NCBI GenBank assembly: GCA_024636855.1
Contig: JAGXGG010000086.1
Coordinates: forward strand, 1-37,397
Length of the DNA stretch: 37,397 nt
Direction: 5' to 3'
Origin: Ignavibacteriota bacterium
Lineage (GTDB): Bacteria > Bacteroidota > Ignavibacteria > Kapaibacteriales > UBA2268
The notes below the pieces were generated by a model, which was given only the letters and a program-made list of their open reading frames with translations, made no database searches and had not been told where the DNA came from. The position numbers were made by a program, and so were the translations under genes. Below, piece after piece: positions 18,184 to 37,093 of this stretch. Position 1 is the stretch's first letter, and each line of letters opens with the position of its first letter.

Positions 18184-19344
18184 TTAGTCTAAGAACTCTA
18201 TTTTGATGTAAGAATTTGCTTTATCGAAAGTACCAAATTTAGTGTATGTGTAATGACCTGGACAGTAGTTTTGGTATACATATTCCTTATAATATTTAAA
18301 TGAAAATACAACTTTGTTCAAGTAAACTTTCAAAAAAGTTTTATTGTTTTCAAAGTATTTTTGACTGCTATCAAATGCAAAGCTTAACTCTAATTCGTCC
18401 ATGTAGAATGTAGCATAATTACTTGAACCCATATCTCGATAATTTCGACTATAACTTAAGTTTGAGACAGTTTTATTTACTGTATCTATAGAAAATTTTA
18501 GGTTGTATGAATGATATATACCGTCACTTGAATTTCCTTTAGCTTTTATCATCTCAATTGAGTTATTTCTGAAAATTAGAGTATCTTCATAAAACATAAC
18601 TCTGTCCTCAATTTTTACTTCACCTTTTTCTTCACCTTGTGAATTATGTGCTCTGTATTCATAACCGACATTAACATCTTTTAAATTAATTTCAAATCGA
18701 ATCTTCTTTCCATATAAAGATAAACTGATTGCATCCATATCCAATTCAACTACTGTATCCTTTGTAATAGCTTTCGTGTAGTAATTCTTAGGTTTAAATC
18801 CCTCAGAATAAATAGTAAAACGGTAATCAAATTGTGATTGAACTTCATTTTCTTTTACTAGTGGATTAGGTAAATATGATGATGATATTATGCTAATATC
18901 TTGCCCATTGCTTGATGTGTTTTTGATGAAAGTTTGTGTTTGATGGCCACTTCTGATAGCGTATAATCCCTGTGGTAATCCAGCTACATTAAGCGTTAAA
19001 TTACCAGAGATTGCAGTTGATGATTTGAAGTGGACTCTACCACTAATATCAGAAATTATTATATCAGAACTCTTCGAATTTACATTCAGAATATCTTCCA
19101 CAGGATTAGGATATATATGAAGACTATTTGATTGTGATTCTATATCAACCGAACTGACTGTTTCGAAGTATATCGAATCAGAAGCGTATAGTTTCTCCTC
19201 ACCAGTGTTCATATCATGCACTAATATGCTATCTATTGGTACTACTTTATCATAGTATCTATCCATAGCTACGAATTTGATGGAGTGCGACCAAAGTGGC
19301 GTAGTGATAAACAGTAATGTAAATATGATTATTAGCTTTTTCAT
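18184..19344 (-). CDS. Secreted protein with an internal T9SS-type domain, tandem paralogue 2
   Basis: This 386-residue protein has a signal peptide (1-19), a short region (IKFVAMDRYYDKVVPIDSIL) and a type A sorting-domain-like module at about 74-141 (HIYPNPVEDILNV, IIISDISGRV, LPQGLYAI, QTFIK). Then, unusually, about 245 more residues follow. Residues 1 to ~205 are nearly identical to the upstream paralogue, while the last ~180 differ except for the ending NSYIKIEF(L/I)D. Its ATG overlaps the upstream stop by one base (TAATG), so the pair is translationally coupled. A normal T9SS signal is C-terminal, so this module may be structural here or use a different processing. Function unknown. Confidence 0.78.
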   Translation of the reverse strand: MKKLIIIFTLLFITTPLWSHSIKFVAMDRYYDKVVPIDSILVHDMNTGEEKLYASDSIYFETVSSVDIESQSNSLHIYPNPVEDILNVNSKSSDIIISDISGRVHFKSSTAISGNLTLNVAGLPQGLYAIRSGHQTQTFIKNTSSNGQDISIISSSYLPNPLVKENEVQSQFDYRFTIYSEGFKPKNYYTKAITKDTVVELDMDAISLSLYGKKIRFEINLKDVNVGYEYRAHNSQGEEKGEVKIEDRVMFYEDTLIFRNNSIEMIKAKGNSSDGIYHSYNLKFSIDTVNKTVSNLSYSRNYRDMGSSNYATFYMDELELSFAFDSSQKYFENNKTFLKVYLNKVVFSFKYYKEYVYQNYCPGHYTYTKFGTFDKANSYIKIEFLD

Positions 19345-20495
19345 TAGTCTATGAACTCTATTTTGATGTAGGAGTTATTTCGATCACATGATTGAAAATC
19401 CCAATTTTTATAATGACCTGAACAATTATAATTGGAATATTTCTGATTCTTTGACATAAAAGTGGCAGTTAGTTCATTAAAGGACTCCACTAGTTTAAAA
19501 TCATCAGTATTGTTATAGGAAACAGATTTCTCAAAGCTAAATATAGATATTTGTGTTTCGTCATGAAATTCATTTATGTTATTAGTCCTTTCATTAGATT
19601 CTTTAGTTAGTTTTAAATTGCTAATCGTTCGATTTAAAGTATCAATGTCAAATTGAATCGTATGCATTTCGAAATTCTCATCACTTTCTTTTTTATAATA
19701 TTTCTTTAAATTTATTTTACCATTTCTTATTACAAGAGTATCAATGAATAACTCTGTAATATCATCAGTACGAATATATTTAATTTCAGGATCAATATGA
19801 ACTTTTATTCTGTAATTCGTTATGTAATCTTTAAAGAATAAAGTCACTTTTATTTTATTCCCATCAAAACTACTAGTTAACGTGGACATATCCAATTCAA
19901 CAACTGTATCTTTAATTAGAGCTTTCGAATAGAAATCCTTAGGCTTGAAGCCTTCAGAATAAATAGTAAAACGGTAATCAAATTGTGATTGAACTTCATT
20001 TTCTTTTACAAGAGAACTAGGATTATACGAAGATGATAAAATGCTAATATCTTGCCCATTACTCGATGTGTTTTTTATAAAAGCTTGAGATTGGTTTCCA
20101 GTTCTTACAGAATAAACACCTTGAGGTAAACCTGCTAAATTAAGTGATATATTACCAGAAATTGCAGTTGATGATTTGAAGTGGACTCTACCACTTATAT
20201 CAGATATTATTATATTAGAACTACTCGCATTCACATTTAGAATATCTTCCACAGGATTAGGATATATATGAAGACTATTTGATTGAGCTAAATTCTCAAC
20301 CGAACTAACTGTTTCGAAGTATATCGAATCAGAAGCGTATAGTTTCTCTTCTCCAGTGTTCATATCATGGACTAATATGCTATCTATTGGTACTACTTTA
20401 TCATAGTATCTATCCATAGCTACGAACTTGATAGAATTCGACCAAAGCAGCGATGTGATGATTAATAATGCAAAGAATAATAATATGTTTTTCAT
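19344..20495 (-). CDS. Secreted protein with an internal T9SS-type domain, tandem paralogue 1
   Basis: This 383-residue protein has the same plan as its downstream neighbour: signal peptide, VAMDRYYDKVVPIDSILVHD, an internal YPNP module at about 74-141 ending AFIK, a linker (QFDYRFTIYSEGFKPKDFYS), then a divergent C-terminal region of about 180 residues. That region is rich in charged and polar residues and ends in a CSGHYK motif and NSYIKIEFID. The neighbour has CPGHYT at the same place. It is the first gene of a coupled pair. A conserved intergenic element (20509-20565) lies directly upstream. I recognise no catalytic motif. Confidence 0.78.
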   Translation of the reverse strand: MKNILLFFALLIITSLLWSNSIKFVAMDRYYDKVVPIDSILVHDMNTGEEKLYASDSIYFETVSSVENLAQSNSLHIYPNPVEDILNVNASSSNIIISDISGRVHFKSSTAISGNISLNLAGLPQGVYSVRTGNQSQAFIKNTSSNGQDISILSSSYNPSSLVKENEVQSQFDYRFTIYSEGFKPKDFYSKALIKDTVVELDMSTLTSSFDGNKIKVTLFFKDYITNYRIKVHIDPEIKYIRTDDITELFIDTLVIRNGKINLKKYYKKESDENFEMHTIQFDIDTLNRTISNLKLTKESNERTNNINEFHDETQISIFSFEKSVSYNNTDDFKLVESFNELTATFMSKNQKYSNYNCSGHYKNWDFQSCDRNNSYIKIEFID

Positions 20496-30308: not shown

Positions 30309-32447
30309 ATGAAAACAATATCTACTATCTTTATAGCTATGCTTTTAGTTGTTAGTTCAACACTTACGTATGGTCAAAATGATAATGCTAGGGAGGGATT
30401 TACAGCTTTTTCGAGCAACGATTCCAATGCAATAATTGTTAGTAGTTTCTATTACGACCATCTACCTTGGGCAACCAACCTGAATATAGCCGAAGGAACC
30501 TCGGAGACCTTCAAACTAGAAATAATGAATAGTTCGGATCTAAGAGACATACAGATGAACTCCAACTCCCGATTAACTTACTATTTTACAAACAACAAAG
30601 TCATTATTTATGAATTTGGTGCTACTAAATCCACAAGAATAATAACTCTAGATAATGGAGGGGATAATTTTGGAGTTTCAAATGATGGTTCTAAAATATA
30701 CTCTTATAGTAACTCACAAGAATATGTTTCCATCTTCGATGCTATGACAGGTGAAAGATTGGATAGGTTTATTGTAAACTCATTCAAAGGGGCTCAACCA
30801 GAAGGCTTTTTCAATTCTGATAAAGATGAGTTTTTACTTCGTAATGGGAATACTCTCTACGTATGGTCTATTGCTAACAAAGTTCAAGATAGAGAAATCA
30901 CACTCCCTAATTCAGTTAAAAATCTTACTATTACAGATAACGGTAATATATTAGCTTATACTGTTGGTGGGGAAGTAATATTAACTAATAGCTCCGATGG
31001 AGAAATCACATATAGAAAGCAATTTGGATACGATAGAATAGATAACATTCAATTTTCTGCTAATATGAATTATCTGATAGTAAGAGATTTTTATTCTTTT
31101 TTAGTTTTTGATGTAGTAAATAAGAAAATAATAACCGAATCGAATAAACCATCAGATGACGGAAAATACATACCAATCTATTATTATGTAAATAATGACA
31201 ATAGCAGAGCTGTAGCTATGGATATTATTGATATATATTGTGGTAGGAATTTTGAAGATGCAGTTACAGATTATATTTACTCTATTTATAAAACAGAAAA
31301 TCTTGATAAGTTAGCTTCAGCACCCTATGGATACATACCTAGACCCGAGAAAGCAATAGTTAGCAAAGATAATAAAGCTTTAGTACTGTCAGGATACAAC
31401 ATAGAAGATGGATTTACTAATGGGCTAGTCGATAATCAAGAGAATTTTATAAAGTACATCAATGTAAATGATTATCCTGTTACTTTCCTCGAAGACAATA
31501 AAAGAATAGCATTTATGGAAGGGGGGAAATTCAAGGTATATAATATTGAAACTGAACAATATGAGCGTGAATTTGAAACAGGAGTGTTAGAATACAATGA
31601 AGTGTACTACTTCGGCTCTGGTGTTGGTAGATTAGTAATCACCAATGACGTCGAGATTAGAGTTTACGACTATGCTACTTTTAATTTACTTTATACTTTC
31701 AACTTTAGCCAGCTAGGAATAGAACCAACTGATATATCGTTTGATAATAATTCGACTATCAGTGTTTATTCACTAAAAAGATTACACAAATTCAATGCAT
31801 ATACTGGTGAGAAAAGCGATACCCCAATCACGAATATTGACCCAACTAATAAGCTAGTTGATATAAGTATAAGCGGTAGATTTCTACTATTCCGCACCAC
31901 TGATAGTGAGTTCATAGTATATGATAATACGCTCAAAGCGGAAGTTTACAAAGAAAAACCTAACTTCGTTGATAATGGGATGGTTTACCTTAGTGCTGGA
32001 TTTTTCGGTAACCACGAAATAATGTGGATTAGATATAAAGCAAACCCAATATTCACAGACCCTTCAGTAGTAATATACGATTTTGTTAATGATAAGACAG
32101 AAGAAATGTTCGGTGACAATGAGCCAATTATCAGCGATGACGGGTCGCTTTACTACTCTCACTATTGCCCTGTAAAATACGAAATAGGAACAATCCGTGA
32201 CCCAAAATCTTCCGTCGAAACAACCGAAGTAATCTCAGGCTCAGTTTACCCCAACCCTGCTTCCGACTTCATAAAGCTAGATTTGAATGCTAGTTCATTA
32301 AACTCTGAAATTGAAATATTCGATGCATACGGTAAGCAAGTAATGAGCGTTATATACACTGGCGAAGTCATTAACATCAGTGGGCTAACAGCTGGGGTTT
32401 ACTTTGTTACAGTGGGTGATAAGTCGATGAAGTTTATTAAATTATAA
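30309..32447 (+). CDS. Secreted beta-propeller T9SS protein, intact member of a three-gene tandem family
   Basis: This 712-residue protein has a signal peptide (1-22, ending LTYG) and repeated four-stranded blades, e.g. DNGGDNFGVSNDGSKIYSYS, ITDNGNILAYTVGGEVILTN, YDYATFNLLYTFNF. These are WD40-like, in the style of quinoprotein propellers. The last ~80 residues form a type A T9SS domain (SVYPNPASDFIKLDL ... GVYFVTV ... KFIKL). GAGGA lies before the ATG. The two genes downstream are paralogues interrupted by TGA; this one has no interruption. Intergenic element copy B begins directly after its stop. Export to the surface is expected; the ligand is unknown. Confidence 0.86.
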   Translation: MKTISTIFIAMLLVVSSTLTYGQNDNAREGFTAFSSNDSNAIIVSSFYYDHLPWATNLNIAEGTSETFKLEIMNSSDLRDIQMNSNSRLTYYFTNNKVIIYEFGATKSTRIITLDNGGDNFGVSNDGSKIYSYSNSQEYVSIFDAMTGERLDRFIVNSFKGAQPEGFFNSDKDEFLLRNGNTLYVWSIANKVQDREITLPNSVKNLTITDNGNILAYTVGGEVILTNSSDGEITYRKQFGYDRIDNIQFSANMNYLIVRDFYSFLVFDVVNKKIITESNKPSDDGKYIPIYYYVNNDNSRAVAMDIIDIYCGRNFEDAVTDYIYSIYKTENLDKLASAPYGYIPRPEKAIVSKDNKALVLSGYNIEDGFTNGLVDNQENFIKYINVNDYPVTFLEDNKRIAFMEGGKFKVYNIETEQYEREFETGVLEYNEVYYFGSGVGRLVITNDVEIRVYDYATFNLLYTFNFSQLGIEPTDISFDNNSTISVYSLKRLHKFNAYTGEKSDTPITNIDPTNKLVDISISGRFLLFRTTDSEFIVYDNTLKAEVYKEKPNFVDNGMVYLSAGFFGNHEIMWIRYKANPIFTDPSVVIYDFVNDKTEEMFGDNEPIISDDGSLYYSHYCPVKYEIGTIRDPKSSVETTEVISGSVYPNPASDFIKLDLNASSLNSEIEIFDAYGKQVMSVIYTGEVINISGLTAGVYFVTVGDKSMKFIKL

Positions 32448-32625: not shown

Positions 32626-34851
32626 ATGAAACTAATTATTACAAATTTACTTATTGCTATAATAGTGACTAGTTCTCTAGTAGCACAGGAATCAATGGAA
32701 GAGTTCCGAGCGGAATTTGTTACTAACCCGCAAGACGACAAAAATATAGTTGTAACTGGCAGATTTTTAGGACAAAATAGTGATTTTAAAGCAATACTGT
32801 TTGATATTGAGAAAGACAGCCATAAGGTTTTTGAAATTGATATCCCTAATGACACCTATATTTCGAGTATTAGTATAAATGTAAAATCAAATAGAATAGC
32901 ATACCAAAGCTACTATTCTATCACAATCTTCAATTATCTGACCTTTGAAAAAATACAAGAGTTTGAGTTAGATAGTAATATTAAAATGAGCAGTTTTTCC
33001 AAAGATGGTAGCAAATACTTGTTCTATAATTCAACTAATAATCAAGTTCTAGTTTACAATATTGATGATGCACAACTGGTTGCTACCCATAACCTAGAGC
33101 CAATTGATGATGGTTATACTTTCACTGCATTCAATCAATTTGCAGATGAACTAGCATTTAGAAAAGACAGTTCGCTAATCATTTGGTCTTTAGATAGCCA
33201 TAGAATTACTAATACTATTCCGTTCAAAGAAGAATATACATTTTACTCTTTTGAAGATAAGGGTAGAATGTTTTGCTTTTATTATGATATGGAAAAAAAG
33301 GGCAAAAATTTTAGAGTAAATGTAGTTGGAGTTGCTTACACAGCTGATGGAAGTATAAAATATACAAGAGATATAGATTATAGTGAACCAAAAAACTTCG
33401 TGTTTACATCTGACATGAAGTATTTGTTACTAAATAATGAATTAAGATCTCAAAGTATATATGATTTAGAAAACGACACTCGAGTTGATAATATGTTAAG
33501 TGTAGGTAAATATGGAAGAATTAATTTTCTATATATTTCACCTGATTTGGAATATTCTATAATACTAGAAGCAGGAATACAAAGTTGTGGTATAAACTGG
33601 GGGGACAGCCAATGATATAGAGAACGGATTTCTACTTATAACTTTAAAGAAAAATCACAAATTAGGCCTCTTATCAATAAATTTATTGAAATGCCTAGAA
33701 TAGCGGTGATAAGCGACGATAATAAATATGTAGTAGTTAATTCATTGGGGATTATTAAAGAAAACTTGTTAGTTACAATTAATGAAGAATTTGTAAAATA
33801 TCTTGAAGTTACTGATGCTTCTCCTGTACTTTTCATAGACCAATCGGAATATATTGGTTTTCAATATTATGAAAAAATTAAATTTTATAATGTTGGAACT
33901 GATGAATTTGATAAAGAATTTGACATTGGTTTATATTATTACAGAGCTAAGTATTACTATACCAAAAATGGTGGCGGTAGGATAATAGTTATGAATGAAG
34001 ATACTATTAATATATTTAATTATACTGATTTGACTTTAAACAAGACTATTATAATAAGTGAATCTGGAATTGGTAGTAATATTAGGTTTGATGGAGTTGA
34101 AAATCTAATCGGCTATGACGGGAATAAAATCAATAAATATAATATATTTGATGAATCGATTACTTCAGATGTAATAGAGAATATACCTGATGGTTTTATA
34201 TTTAAAAGATTCTCGCCAAATGGAAGATATGTACTCTTTGGGAAATACGATCAATATAAAAATATTAATTATGAAGTTGGCATATATGATATGCAAACAG
34301 ATATCTTTAAAACGAAGGACTTAGCTAGTGATTCACTTAATGAAAACTCTACAGATTTTACTTTTGGTCTTGTAGGCAACCTCCCAATAGTTTGGTATTA
34401 TTACAATTATGCTAAATTTAAAGGTGGACATAGCCTCTATTATACTTATTCTTCTTATGATTTTGATAAAGAAACTATCTCCGAATATGACTTTTCTGAC
34501 CCAAAGTATGTTGATAATAATGATAGATCTTTTCTAAACAACGATTATAACTACTACATTAAACTAAGCTGCCCTTGGTCATACAGCATAACTCAACTTA
34601 GCGACTCACAATCCTCCGTCGAAACAACCACCACTATCACAGGCTCAGTTTACCCCAACCCCGCATCAGACTTCATCAAGATAGATATGAATGCAACTTC
34701 TATTAACTCTAGCATTGAGATATTCGATGCTTTCGGAAAGCAGGTAATGAGCATTATATACACTGGCGAAAATATAGATATCAGCTCACTTACAGCTGGG
34801 GTGTACTTTGTGAAAGTGGGTAGCAAGTCATGGAAATTTATTAAATTGTAG
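32626..34851 (+). pseudogene. Beta-propeller T9SS paralogue interrupted by one in-frame TGA
   Basis: The reading frame is the same before and after a single TGA at 33613-33615. The first part (32626-33612, 329 residues) has the signal peptide and four or so blades. The second, from the next ATG at 33691 to 34851 (386 residues), has more blades and a full type A T9SS domain (SVYPNPASDFIKIDM ... GVYFVKV ... KFIKL). The codons between TGA and 33691 still encode homologous residues (RISTYNFKEK.QIRPL in both this and the next gene). Reading through, 741 codons would be complete. Without readthrough, the first product lacks the T9SS signal and a re-initiated second one lacks a signal peptide. No other disruption was seen. 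A recent nonsense mutation is the plain reading. Confidence 0.75.
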
Positions 34852-34876
34852 GGTATTTAAATAAGAGGAGAACGTT

Positions 34877-37093
34877 ATGAGATTAATAATTATAAATTTA
34901 TTCGTGGCTTTGCTATTTACTAGTTCTGTTTTAGCACAGGAATCTATTCCCTATTTACATATAGATTTCGTTTCTAATCCTCAAGATGATAAAAACATAG
35001 TTGTATCAGGTTGGATAGGACATACTAGTGGGGATATAGCTATTGTTTTCGATATTGAGAATGACAGTTATCAAATCTTTGACATCGACTTACCTTGGGG
35101 CACTGATATTCGGAGCATAGAGATAAATGCTGAATCAAAAAGAATTGCTTACTACACCTCAGATTCTATTACTGTTTTCAATTATATGACTTTTGAAAAA
35201 ATACAAGTGTTTGAGTTAGATACTAATATTAAAAAGAGTAGCTTTTCTAAAGATGGAAGTAAATACTTGTTCTATAATTCAACTAAAAATCAAGTTCTAG
35301 TATATAATATTGAGGATGCAAAACTAGTTTCTATGCATGATTTAGACACAGTAAATGATGGGTATAAGTTTGAATCTTTCAATCCTTACAAAGATGAGAT
35401 TGCCTTCAGACGAGACAGTACACTCCTATTTTGGTCAATAACCAATCAAAAAGGCACGAATATAATTCCATTCAAAGAAGAATATAAATTCCATTCATTT
35501 GAAGACAATGGAAACCTATTTAGCTTTTCTTATGACATCGAAAAAGAGGGAAAATTTAAAAATGTAAATATAATAGGTGTTGCTCATACTTCAAATGGAA
35601 GTATAAAATATACAAGGGATATTGATTTTAATGAACCTGAAAATTTCGATTTCACATCTGATATGAGATATTTGTTACTAAATAATGATTTAAGATTTCA
35701 AAGGATTTATGATTTAGAGGAAGATACTTACGTTTACAATAGGTTAGGTGTGGGTTTACATGATATAATTAGTCATCTATATATTTCAACCAATTTAGAG
35801 TATTCTATAATTTTAGAACACGGAACTCAACGTTGCGGTTGGATAGACGCAGATAACTCAAGTCAAGCAATTCGTATTTCAACTTATAATTTCAAAGAAA
35901 AAAAACAAATCAGACCTCTAGTAAATAAATTTGTTGGTATGCCGCGTAATGCTGTAATAAGTGATAACAATAAATATGTCGTTATTTTCTCGGGTTATCA
36001 AGGAAACGAAAATACTTTATTTACTATAGATGAAAGTTTTGTTAAGTATCTTAAAGTAGATGATGCTAAACCAGTACTTTTTATAGAGCAATCAAAATAT
36101 ATAGGTTTTATGTATGGTCAAACAATGAAGTTTTATAATCTACAGACAGATCAATTTGAAAAAGAGTTTGATACAGGCTTAGAAGAAACATACTTTGGAA
36201 ACACTTATTATTACACTGAAAGTGGCGGCGGTTGAATTATTGTAATGAAAGATGATACTATAAATATATTCAAATATTCTGATTTGAGTTTAAATAAATC
36301 GATAATTATATCTGAATCTGGTATAGGTAGTCAAATTAAGTTTGATGGAAAAGAGAATATAATCGGTTATGATAGCAATAGAATCAATAAATACAATATA
36401 TTTGATGAGTCAATTACATCGGATTTGATAGAAAATGTACCTGATGATTTTATCTTTAAAAGTGTTTCACCAAATGGTAGATATGTACTATATGGGAAGT
36501 ACTTTGATTATCAAAATATTGACTACGAAGTCGGAATATATGATATGCAAACGGACAAATTTAGAGTAAAGGACTTGGCTAGTGATTCACTAAATGATAG
36601 AACTAGAGAATTTGATTTTGGTTTAATTGGAAACCTTCCTGTGGTATGGTACTATTATATTTATAATGGAACTTCGTATGATTTTAGTTATTATGCCTAT
36701 GATTTTGATTTGGACACGATTTCAGATTATCTTTTCTCAGATCAGGAAACCAATTCTAATGACAATCAATCCTACCTTAGTAATGATAATAGTTATTATA
36801 TTAATATAACTTGCCCTTGGGACTACAATATCACTCAGCTTAGTGACCCTCAAACCTCCGTCGAAACTACAACAGCCATAACTGGCTCAGTTTACCCCAA
36901 CCCTGCAAGTGATTTCATAAAGATAGATTTGAAAACAGCAGCTATAAACTCTGAGATACAGATATTCGATGCTTATGGTAAGCAGGCGATGAGCGTGATA
37001 TATACAGGCGAAGACATTGATATAAGCAAGTTAACCGCAGGGGTTTATTTTGTGAAAACCCCGAGCCATAGCTACAAGTTTATAAAGCTGTAA
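34877..37093 (+). pseudogene. Second beta-propeller T9SS paralogue interrupted by one in-frame TGA
   Basis: This gene is closely similar to the previous one over its whole length (signal peptide ending VLAQ, VSNPQDDKNIVVSG, SFSKDGSKYLFYNST, ISTYNFKEKKQIRPL, VSPNGRYVLYGKY, T9SS tail SVYPNPASDFIKIDL). A single TGA at 36233-36235 replaces the Arg of the paralogue (GGGR-IIVM here GGG-stop-IIVM), with the frame unchanged on both sides. The first part is 34877-36232 (452 residues); the second, from ATG 36245, is 282 residues. The position differs from the TGA in the previous gene. GAGGAGA precedes the start, 25 bases behind the previous stop, so the two are likely one transcript. A CGA-to-TGA change would explain it. 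Confidence 0.75.

What the first reader, a model, noticed from the sequence alone, without database searches (positions are those of the whole stretch)
32626..37093. Two adjacent T9SS propeller paralogues, each with exactly one in-frame TGA at different sites
Each gene is otherwise an uninterrupted frame of about 740 codons with signal peptide, blades and a complete sorting domain, and the sequence beyond each TGA is still conserved. The sites differ (33613-33615 and 36233-36235), so this is not one inherited mutation. Decay usually leaves several lesions, including frameshifts; here there is one nonsense codon each and it is TGA both times. Options are recent independent inactivation, TGA readthrough giving a minority of full-length secreted protein, or a reservoir of variants for recombination with the intact copy at 30309.
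Basis: partly seen in the sequence, partly recalled or inferred. Interest (0 to 1): 0.75.

Follow-up and report, generated by a model that had tools for sequence, protein, structure and literature searches.

The report
Two recently silenced secreted propeller genes
Two neighbouring bacterial genes for secreted double-propeller proteins each carry one premature stop codon that looks young and most likely just switches them off; the more interesting point is that genes of this cluster swap their bodies and their export tails between positions and species.

Summary
B (32626-34851) and C (34877-37093) are each open except for one TGA (33613-33615; 36233-36235), with complete sorting domains downstream. 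The window is one contig of a 3.1-Mb, 110-contig genome of the genus of "Ignavibacteriae bacterium HGW-Ignavibacteriae-4". That species has an open orthologue of B; none of the nine array genes in three sister species has an internal stop. The orthologue has arginine at site B, and 6 of 11 other array genes have it at site C. Sequence beyond each stop is as constrained as before it, so B's lesion is young: at most about 5-19% of its branch. TGA is not special: other T9SS-tail genes of this genome show one in-frame TAA and two frameshifts. No UGA-reading or selenocysteine tRNA was found and RF2 is normal. Best reading: recent, independent loss-of-function lesions, possibly polymorphic. Functional readthrough is unsupported. 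New: array members exchange bodies above a locus-specific secretion tail, also between species. Whether silenced copies serve as donors is open.

The parts
30309..32447 (+). Gene A, open first copy of the array (712 aa; propeller body plus sorting tail)
   Evidence: relative G3_1 at 69% identity
32208..32447 (+). Sorting tail (CTD) of A
   Evidence: PF18962 at 32244-32438; boundary from the alignment
32626..34851 (+). Gene B, double-propeller T9SS gene interrupted by one TGA
33613..33615 (+). In-frame TGA of B, at the junction between first and second lobe; arginine in the orthologue
   Evidence: strand layout of the model, residue 329 by count
34612..34851 (+). Sorting tail of B; synonymous divergence from the orthologue 1.32 against 0.47 in the body, which points to an exchanged tail
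   Evidence: PF18962 at 34648-34836
34852..34876 (+). 25-base gap between B and C with a Shine-Dalgarno-like stretch (read by eye); co-transcription inferred
   Evidence: sequence
34877..37093 (+). Gene C, paralogue of B (65% identical), interrupted by one TGA
36233..36235 (+). In-frame TGA of C, inside the second lobe; arginine in 6 of 11 other array genes (A, B, G3_1, G3_2, G2_1, G1_2), lysine in 2, isoleucine or valine in 3
   Evidence: residue 450 of the model by count
36854..37093 (+). Sorting tail of C; of the type carried by the last gene of the array in G003 and G002 although its body is B-like
   Evidence: PF18962 at 36890-37084

Best explanation
A, B and C form a tandem array of secreted proteins: signal peptide, two WD40-like propellers, and a type IX sorting tail. 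In this genome B and C have each independently acquired one nonsense mutation. Shown: the stops, their independence, the open relatives, and undiminished constraint on both sides. Inferred: translation ends at 329 aa (B) and 452 aa (C); without the sorting tail the fragments cannot reach the surface and are probably degraded, so both genes are loss-of-function alleles, either fixed or polymorphic in the population. Also inferred: C lies 25 bp behind B, so a stop in B may lower C's expression by polarity and relax selection on C, which would explain two hits in neighbours. The array evolves by exchange of bodies above a locus-specific tail, so single copies seem replaceable; that would let such lesions appear and be purged without long decay.
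For: Open orthologue of B in HGW-Ignavibacteriae-4 and no internal stop in any of nine array genes of G001, G002 and G003. dN/dS B vs orthologue: 0.262 upstream and 0.235 downstream of the stop; C vs the same: 0.190 and 0.175. B-lineage N/S downstream 0.73 against a neutral expectation of 3.18, giving a 95% upper bound on time without constraint of 0.19, 0.07 or 0.05 of the branch for prior N/S of 0.73, 1.05 or 1.11; with 1.38 even zero is rejected. Same class, same genome, other lesions: in-frame TAA at C63:29757 (frame 957 aa against 1576 aa in G002 and G003), frameshift near C20:37486 (732 aa against 998 aa in G001 and 1750 aa in G002), frameshift at an A8 run in the middle copy of a C56 trio with open neighbours. 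TGA is an ordinary stop: it ends 47 of 310 sampled ORFs, the two at issue among them.
Against: Two of the three nonsense lesions found lie in adjacent genes. Both are TGA (P 0.034-0.039), and both stand where the compared relatives have arginine (nonsense chances from Arg codons 0.050-0.053 in B and 0.033-0.035 in C, about 0.002 jointly, a posteriori). No sign of relaxed selection was found on either gene, so loss of function rests on the codon, not on an effect. No reads or strains were available. C has no close orthologue among the genomes searched, so its stop cannot be dated.
Confidence: 0.8

Rival explanations
1. Functional readthrough: TGA is suppressed at low level (for example by tRNA-Trp), giving a small amount of full-length surface protein while most product is truncated.
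For: Constraint persists beyond both stops; TGA is called the leaky stop, and bacterial genes with in-frame stops and dN/dS below 1 are reported as widespread (PMC7918605). The tRNA list is incomplete: 29 genes, none for Ala or Ile.
Against: The orthologue of B has a sense codon. None of the 29 tRNAs found reads UGA; the one tRNA-Trp has anticodon CCA, is identical in the four genomes of the genus, and has five anticodon-stem pairs by eye, the outermost G-U. RF2 has its programmed frameshift at TGA. No selB or tRNA-Sec reached its cut-off. A TAA and two frameshifts hit the same gene class.
Confidence: 0.06
2. Assembly or consensus artefact: the genome is a fragmented assembly, and a minority or mixed-strain base at each site was called.
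For: C ends 304 bases from a contig end; 110 contigs. Frameshifts elsewhere sit at an A8 run and a TA-rich stretch, where errors are common.
Against: In the 400-kb sample no gene-internal stop was seen, so consensus error dense enough to hit two adjacent genes is unlikely; frameshifts were not sought in that sample. B and C are too diverged (65% aa) to be collapsed in assembly.
Confidence: 0.08
3. Silent-donor reservoir: interrupted copies are kept as sequence donors for A or for neighbours, so selection maintains them although they are not expressed.
For: Array members exchange tails and bodies; tails of A, B and C are 74-79% identical, against 35-47% for the best-scoring other tails of the genome, while A and B or C are 28-29% identical overall.
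Against: Between A and B or A and C the only shared run of 20 or more bases (22 and 23) lies in the tail. Their bodies are too diverged for gene conversion to be likely. None of nine array genes in the sister species is interrupted.
Confidence: 0.06

Closest known systems
In-frame stop codons in prokaryotic genes with dN/dS below 1 (PMC7918605)
   Same: One nonsense codon in an otherwise constrained gene; that paper finds such stops mostly short-lived, on the scale of population polymorphism (abstract, Results part 1 of 2 and Discussion part 1 of 2 read)
   Different: Here two adjacent paralogues in one genome, with no second strain to show that the stop allele is shared or reverted
Type IX secretion cargo with Por_Secre_tail (PF18962)
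   Same: Signal peptide, all-beta body, C-terminal sorting domain; 150 matches in this genome
   Different: The stops cut the sorting domain off, so export to the surface is predicted to fail
Domain and allele exchange among Porphyromonas gingivalis surface proteins (PMC5266723)
   Same: Surface proteins, gingipains with a conserved C-terminal domain among them, diversify by recombination (abstract and found passages read)
   Different: Here whole propeller bodies move above a locus-specific tail in a tandem array, also between species
Silent-cassette antigenic variation such as vls of Borrelia (PMC11499132; start of abstract in a search listing only)
   Same: Tandem paralogues that recombine, some not expressed
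   Different: No single expression site and no shown transfer from a silent to an open copy

Membership tests
Young pseudogene / loss-of-function allele | A disabling lesion where relatives have an open frame | tested here: met
   Orthologue of B open, 739 aa; nine array genes of three sister species without internal stop, one of them running off its contig. For C only paralogues and more distant relatives could be compared
Young pseudogene / loss-of-function allele | Relaxed selection after the lesion | tested here: inconclusive
   dN/dS unchanged; may be too young to show, bound 5-19% of the branch for B
Functional UGA readthrough or recoding | Stop kept in orthologues under constraint | tested here: not met
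   The one orthologue of B has arginine; no close orthologue of C was found to test
Functional UGA readthrough or recoding | A tRNA or factor that reads UGA, or missing RF2 | tested here: not met
   29 tRNAs found, none UCA, list incomplete; RF2 present with programmed frameshift; no selB or tRNA-Sec above cut-off
Functional UGA readthrough or recoding | Full-length product | not testable with these tools
   Needs proteomics or a reporter
Type IX secretion cargo | C-terminal PF18962 domain above its cut-off | tested here: met
   (A and the downstream parts of B and C)
Type IX secretion cargo | N-terminal signal peptide | tested here: met
   Read by eye and N-terminal helix 2-19 in the low-confidence part of the orthologue's model; no dedicated predictor was available
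Tandem WD40-like double propeller | Two successive propellers | tested here: inconclusive
   Model of the open orthologue (738 of 739 residues), mean pLDDT 66, pTM 0.45: two all-beta lobes. Matches are tandem WD proteins such as Pwp2 (rank 1) and Utp21 (rank 36), E down to 1.4e-17 but TM-scores 0.2-0.4, so blade count is not settled
Silent-cassette antigenic variation | Recombination among array members | tested here: met
   Tail and body similarity unrelated (Mantel r -0.098 and 0.061); body shared between species at 99.2%
Silent-cassette antigenic variation | Silent copies act as donors to an expressed copy | tested here: inconclusive
   No tract between A and B or C outside the tail; needs a strain series

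The most novel reading that the evidence does not exclude
This genus keeps its tandem secreted propellers as an exchangeable repertoire: bodies move between array positions and between species by recombination in a locus-specific sorting tail, and single lesions (nonsense, run-length changes) switch individual copies off while exchange restores or replaces them, so the pool of silent but still constrained alleles is part of how surface propellers vary.
Probability: 0.12. Interest if true: 0.6.

Novelty: new member of a known kind. Interest (0 to 1): 0.28.

Why it matters
For the stops themselves: little. They are a clean example of how a single in-frame TGA in a constrained gene can look like recoding but finds an ordinary explanation once open relatives and the lesion spectrum of the gene class are checked. 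For the array: it shows modular exchange of large secreted propellers above a locus-specific type IX tail, also between species of a lineage known here from genome assemblies, which could explain how such cargo repertoires diversify and why single copies can be lost.

Tried and rejected
Genome-wide reassignment of TGA: rejected, since TGA ends 47 of 310 sampled ORFs (45 without B and C) and RF2 is present. Selenocysteine: no selB or tRNA-Sec above cut-off, and the compared residue is arginine, not cysteine. tRNA-Trp with a 4-bp anticodon stem, shown to read UGA (PMC13092985; abstract and passages): the single tRNA-Trp found has five pairs by eye, the outermost G-U, and is 100% identical in the four genomes of the genus. 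A TAA inside prfB reported by the search is out-of-frame reading upstream of the programmed frameshift (one search had translated the wrong strand). One inherited mutation: excluded, the sites differ. B-C gene conversion: the shared runs of 20 or more bases are only 26, 22, 20 and 20. Lineage test for relaxed selection on B: no contrast significant (Fisher p 0.12-1.0). A scan of genome contigs with the first part of B found no relative; a second with the open orthologue found only HGW-Ignavibacteriae-4. Paper searches for T9SS with gene conversion and with pseudogene plus premature stop gave one paper each. The C88 array was not fully read: one member lacks an ATG where the others start.

Full report
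What was checked. Gene A (30309-32447) is open; B (32626-34851) and C (34877-37093) each have one internal stop, TGA at 33613-33615 and 36233-36235. All three look like T9SS cargo: Pfam finds weak beta-propeller matches, below the curated cut-offs, in the first parts, and PF18962 above cut-off at the ends. In G000 a probe from B found only these three copies.

Relatives. With the same probe 4 of 60 genomes matched, all of one genus and G000 among them; none of the nine matches in G001, G002 and G003 has an internal stop. Each of these three sister species has a tandem array of three such open genes, one of G001 running off its contig. The array of G003 lies on a 73,094-base contig; PGYR01000017.1 of Ignavibacteriae bacterium HGW-Ignavibacteriae-4 has the same length and, for the B-type gene, the same protein; NCBI places it in Ignavibacteriota. 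Its second gene (G3_2) is the orthologue of B: 78% identical over the whole protein, 83% over the second part, open for 739 aa. C is 65-66% identical to both, and no closer relative of it was seen.

The sites. Site B is arginine in G3_2, in a loop where the other array genes differ; site C is arginine in 6 of the 11 other array genes (A, B, G3_1, G3_2, G2_1, G1_2), lysine in 2 and isoleucine or valine in 3. In a model of the open orthologue (mean pLDDT 66, pTM 0.45) site B is residue 329 by count, between the last strand of the first lobe and the first strand of the second; site C is residue 450, inside the second lobe. Foldseek matches are tandem WD40 proteins such as Pwp2 and Utp21, with low TM-scores. 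Both truncated products lack the sorting tail.

Constraint and age. Nei-Gojobori dN/dS between B and G3_2 is 0.262 upstream of site B and 0.235 from site B to the tail; between C and G3_2 it is 0.190 upstream and 0.175 downstream of site C. With C as outgroup, the B lineage has N/S 0.73 downstream of its stop, against 1.33 upstream, 1.38 downstream in the G3_2 lineage, and a neutral expectation of 3.18; no contrast between lineages or sides is significant. The 95% upper bound on the share of the B branch spent without constraint is 0.19, 0.07 or 0.05 for prior N/S of 0.73, 1.05 or 1.11; with 1.38 even zero is rejected. So the conserved downstream sequence is what a young lesion predicts and does not by itself argue for readthrough. 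C cannot be dated this way.

Is TGA special? From the codons of B and C, a random nonsense change is TGA in 18-20% of cases; two TGA by chance has P 0.034-0.039, two of the same stop 0.38-0.40. That both stand where the compared relatives have arginine is a further coincidence (about 0.002 jointly, a posteriori), which I leave unexplained. The genome has RF2, whose gene carries the usual programmed frameshift at TGA. Of 29 tRNAs found none has anticodon UCA; the list lacks Ala and Ile, so it is incomplete. No selB or tRNA-Sec reached its cut-off. tRNA-Trp (CCA) is identical in the four genomes of the genus; its anticodon stem has five pairs with a terminal G-U, read by eye. TGA ends 47 of 310 sampled ORFs, B and C's among them (TAA 176, TAG 87).

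Census of the gene class. PF18962 has 150 matches in G000. The stretches I fetched cover 138; 12 were not covered; 11 frames ran off the stretch or contig, leaving 127. Of these, 108 have a strict signal-peptide-like start and 19 were read by eye: 13 looked acceptable (one without an ATG) and 6 did not. The six are B, C, an orphan tail fragment at C78:10145, and three further interrupted genes: an in-frame TAA at C63:29757 (957 aa against 1576 aa in G002 and G003); a frameshift near C20:37486 (732 aa against 998 aa in G001 and 1750 aa in G002, no match in G003); and a frameshift at an A8 run, followed by TGA in the shifted frame, in the middle copy of a tandem trio on C56 whose neighbours are open. 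So 5 of 127 carry one lesion each: two in-frame TGA, one in-frame TAA, two frameshifts. The filter can miss lesions, so 5 is a lower bound. In the 400-kb general sample plus the window, 37 places have a stop between two open frames of at least 90 codons; by eye only B and C were interior. Frameshifts were not sought in that sample, so whether T9SS genes are hit more often than others is not settled.

What the array does. The tails of A, B and C are 74-79% identical in protein, against 35-47% for the best-scoring others among 138 tails compared (the best eight per query were listed), although A and B or C are 28-29% identical overall. Across 11 array genes of four species (the third gene of G001 was left out, its tail is missing), tail similarity has no relation to body similarity (Mantel r -0.098, p 0.78, and 0.061, p 0.30). 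C has a B-like body but the tail type of the last array gene in G003 and G002 (last 22 codons 0.91 and 0.86 identical; supports 0.946 and 0.991 in the tail tree, 1.000 for the conflicting body clade). B's tail differs from its orthologue's with dS 1.32 against 0.47 in the body. The first gene of G001 and the second of G002 are 99.2% identical in DNA over the body but 87.8% in the tail, where two other stretches compared between these genomes are 71% and 86% identical: a recent transfer of a body between species and array positions. The mosaic is shown by sequence; the mechanism, homologous recombination in the shared tail, is inferred.

Conclusion. The two TGAs are best read as young, independent loss-of-function lesions in a class of apparently dispensable, exchangeable secreted proteins. 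In-frame stops in constrained bacterial genes are known and mostly short-lived (PMC7918605: abstract, Results part 1 of 2, Discussion part 1 of 2). Domain and allele exchange among surface proteins is known for Porphyromonas gingivalis (PMC5266723: abstract and passages). C's closeness to B (25 bases) makes a polar effect plausible, but this is inference. Readthrough is not excluded, since no protein data exist. The tail-exchange pattern was not seen described for T9SS arrays in the searches, of which I saw listings only, apart from PMC5266723.

Noticed in passing
L015:132-2315 (G001) and L014:7328-9511 (G002): Array genes of two species share a body at 99.2% DNA identity but tails at 87.8%, while two other stretches compared are 71% and 86% identical: recent body transfer between species and positions.
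   Followed up: yes
G000:C56 about 2631 (L071): Middle gene of a tandem trio with sorting tail is interrupted by a frameshift at an A8 run followed by TGA; could be run-length switching or a consensus error.
   Followed up: partly
G000:C63:29757 (L157): Large T9SS gene with one in-frame TAA; orthologues in G002 and G003 open for 1576 aa.
   Followed up: partly
G000:C20 about 37486 (L107): T9SS gene interrupted by a frameshift in a TA-rich stretch; relatives open for 998 and 1750 aa.
   Followed up: partly
G000:C78:10145-10372 (L072): Orphan sorting-tail fragment with only 9 codons of open frame before it, directly behind a complete T9SS gene.
   Followed up: no
G000:C88:20500-35500 (L078): Tandem array of at least six similar T9SS genes; the member nearest 20500 has no ATG where the others start.
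   Followed up: no
window 18184-20495: Two adjacent genes of 386 and 383 aa whose PF18962 match lies at residues 77-141, not at the C-terminus, unusual for a sorting tail.
   Followed up: no
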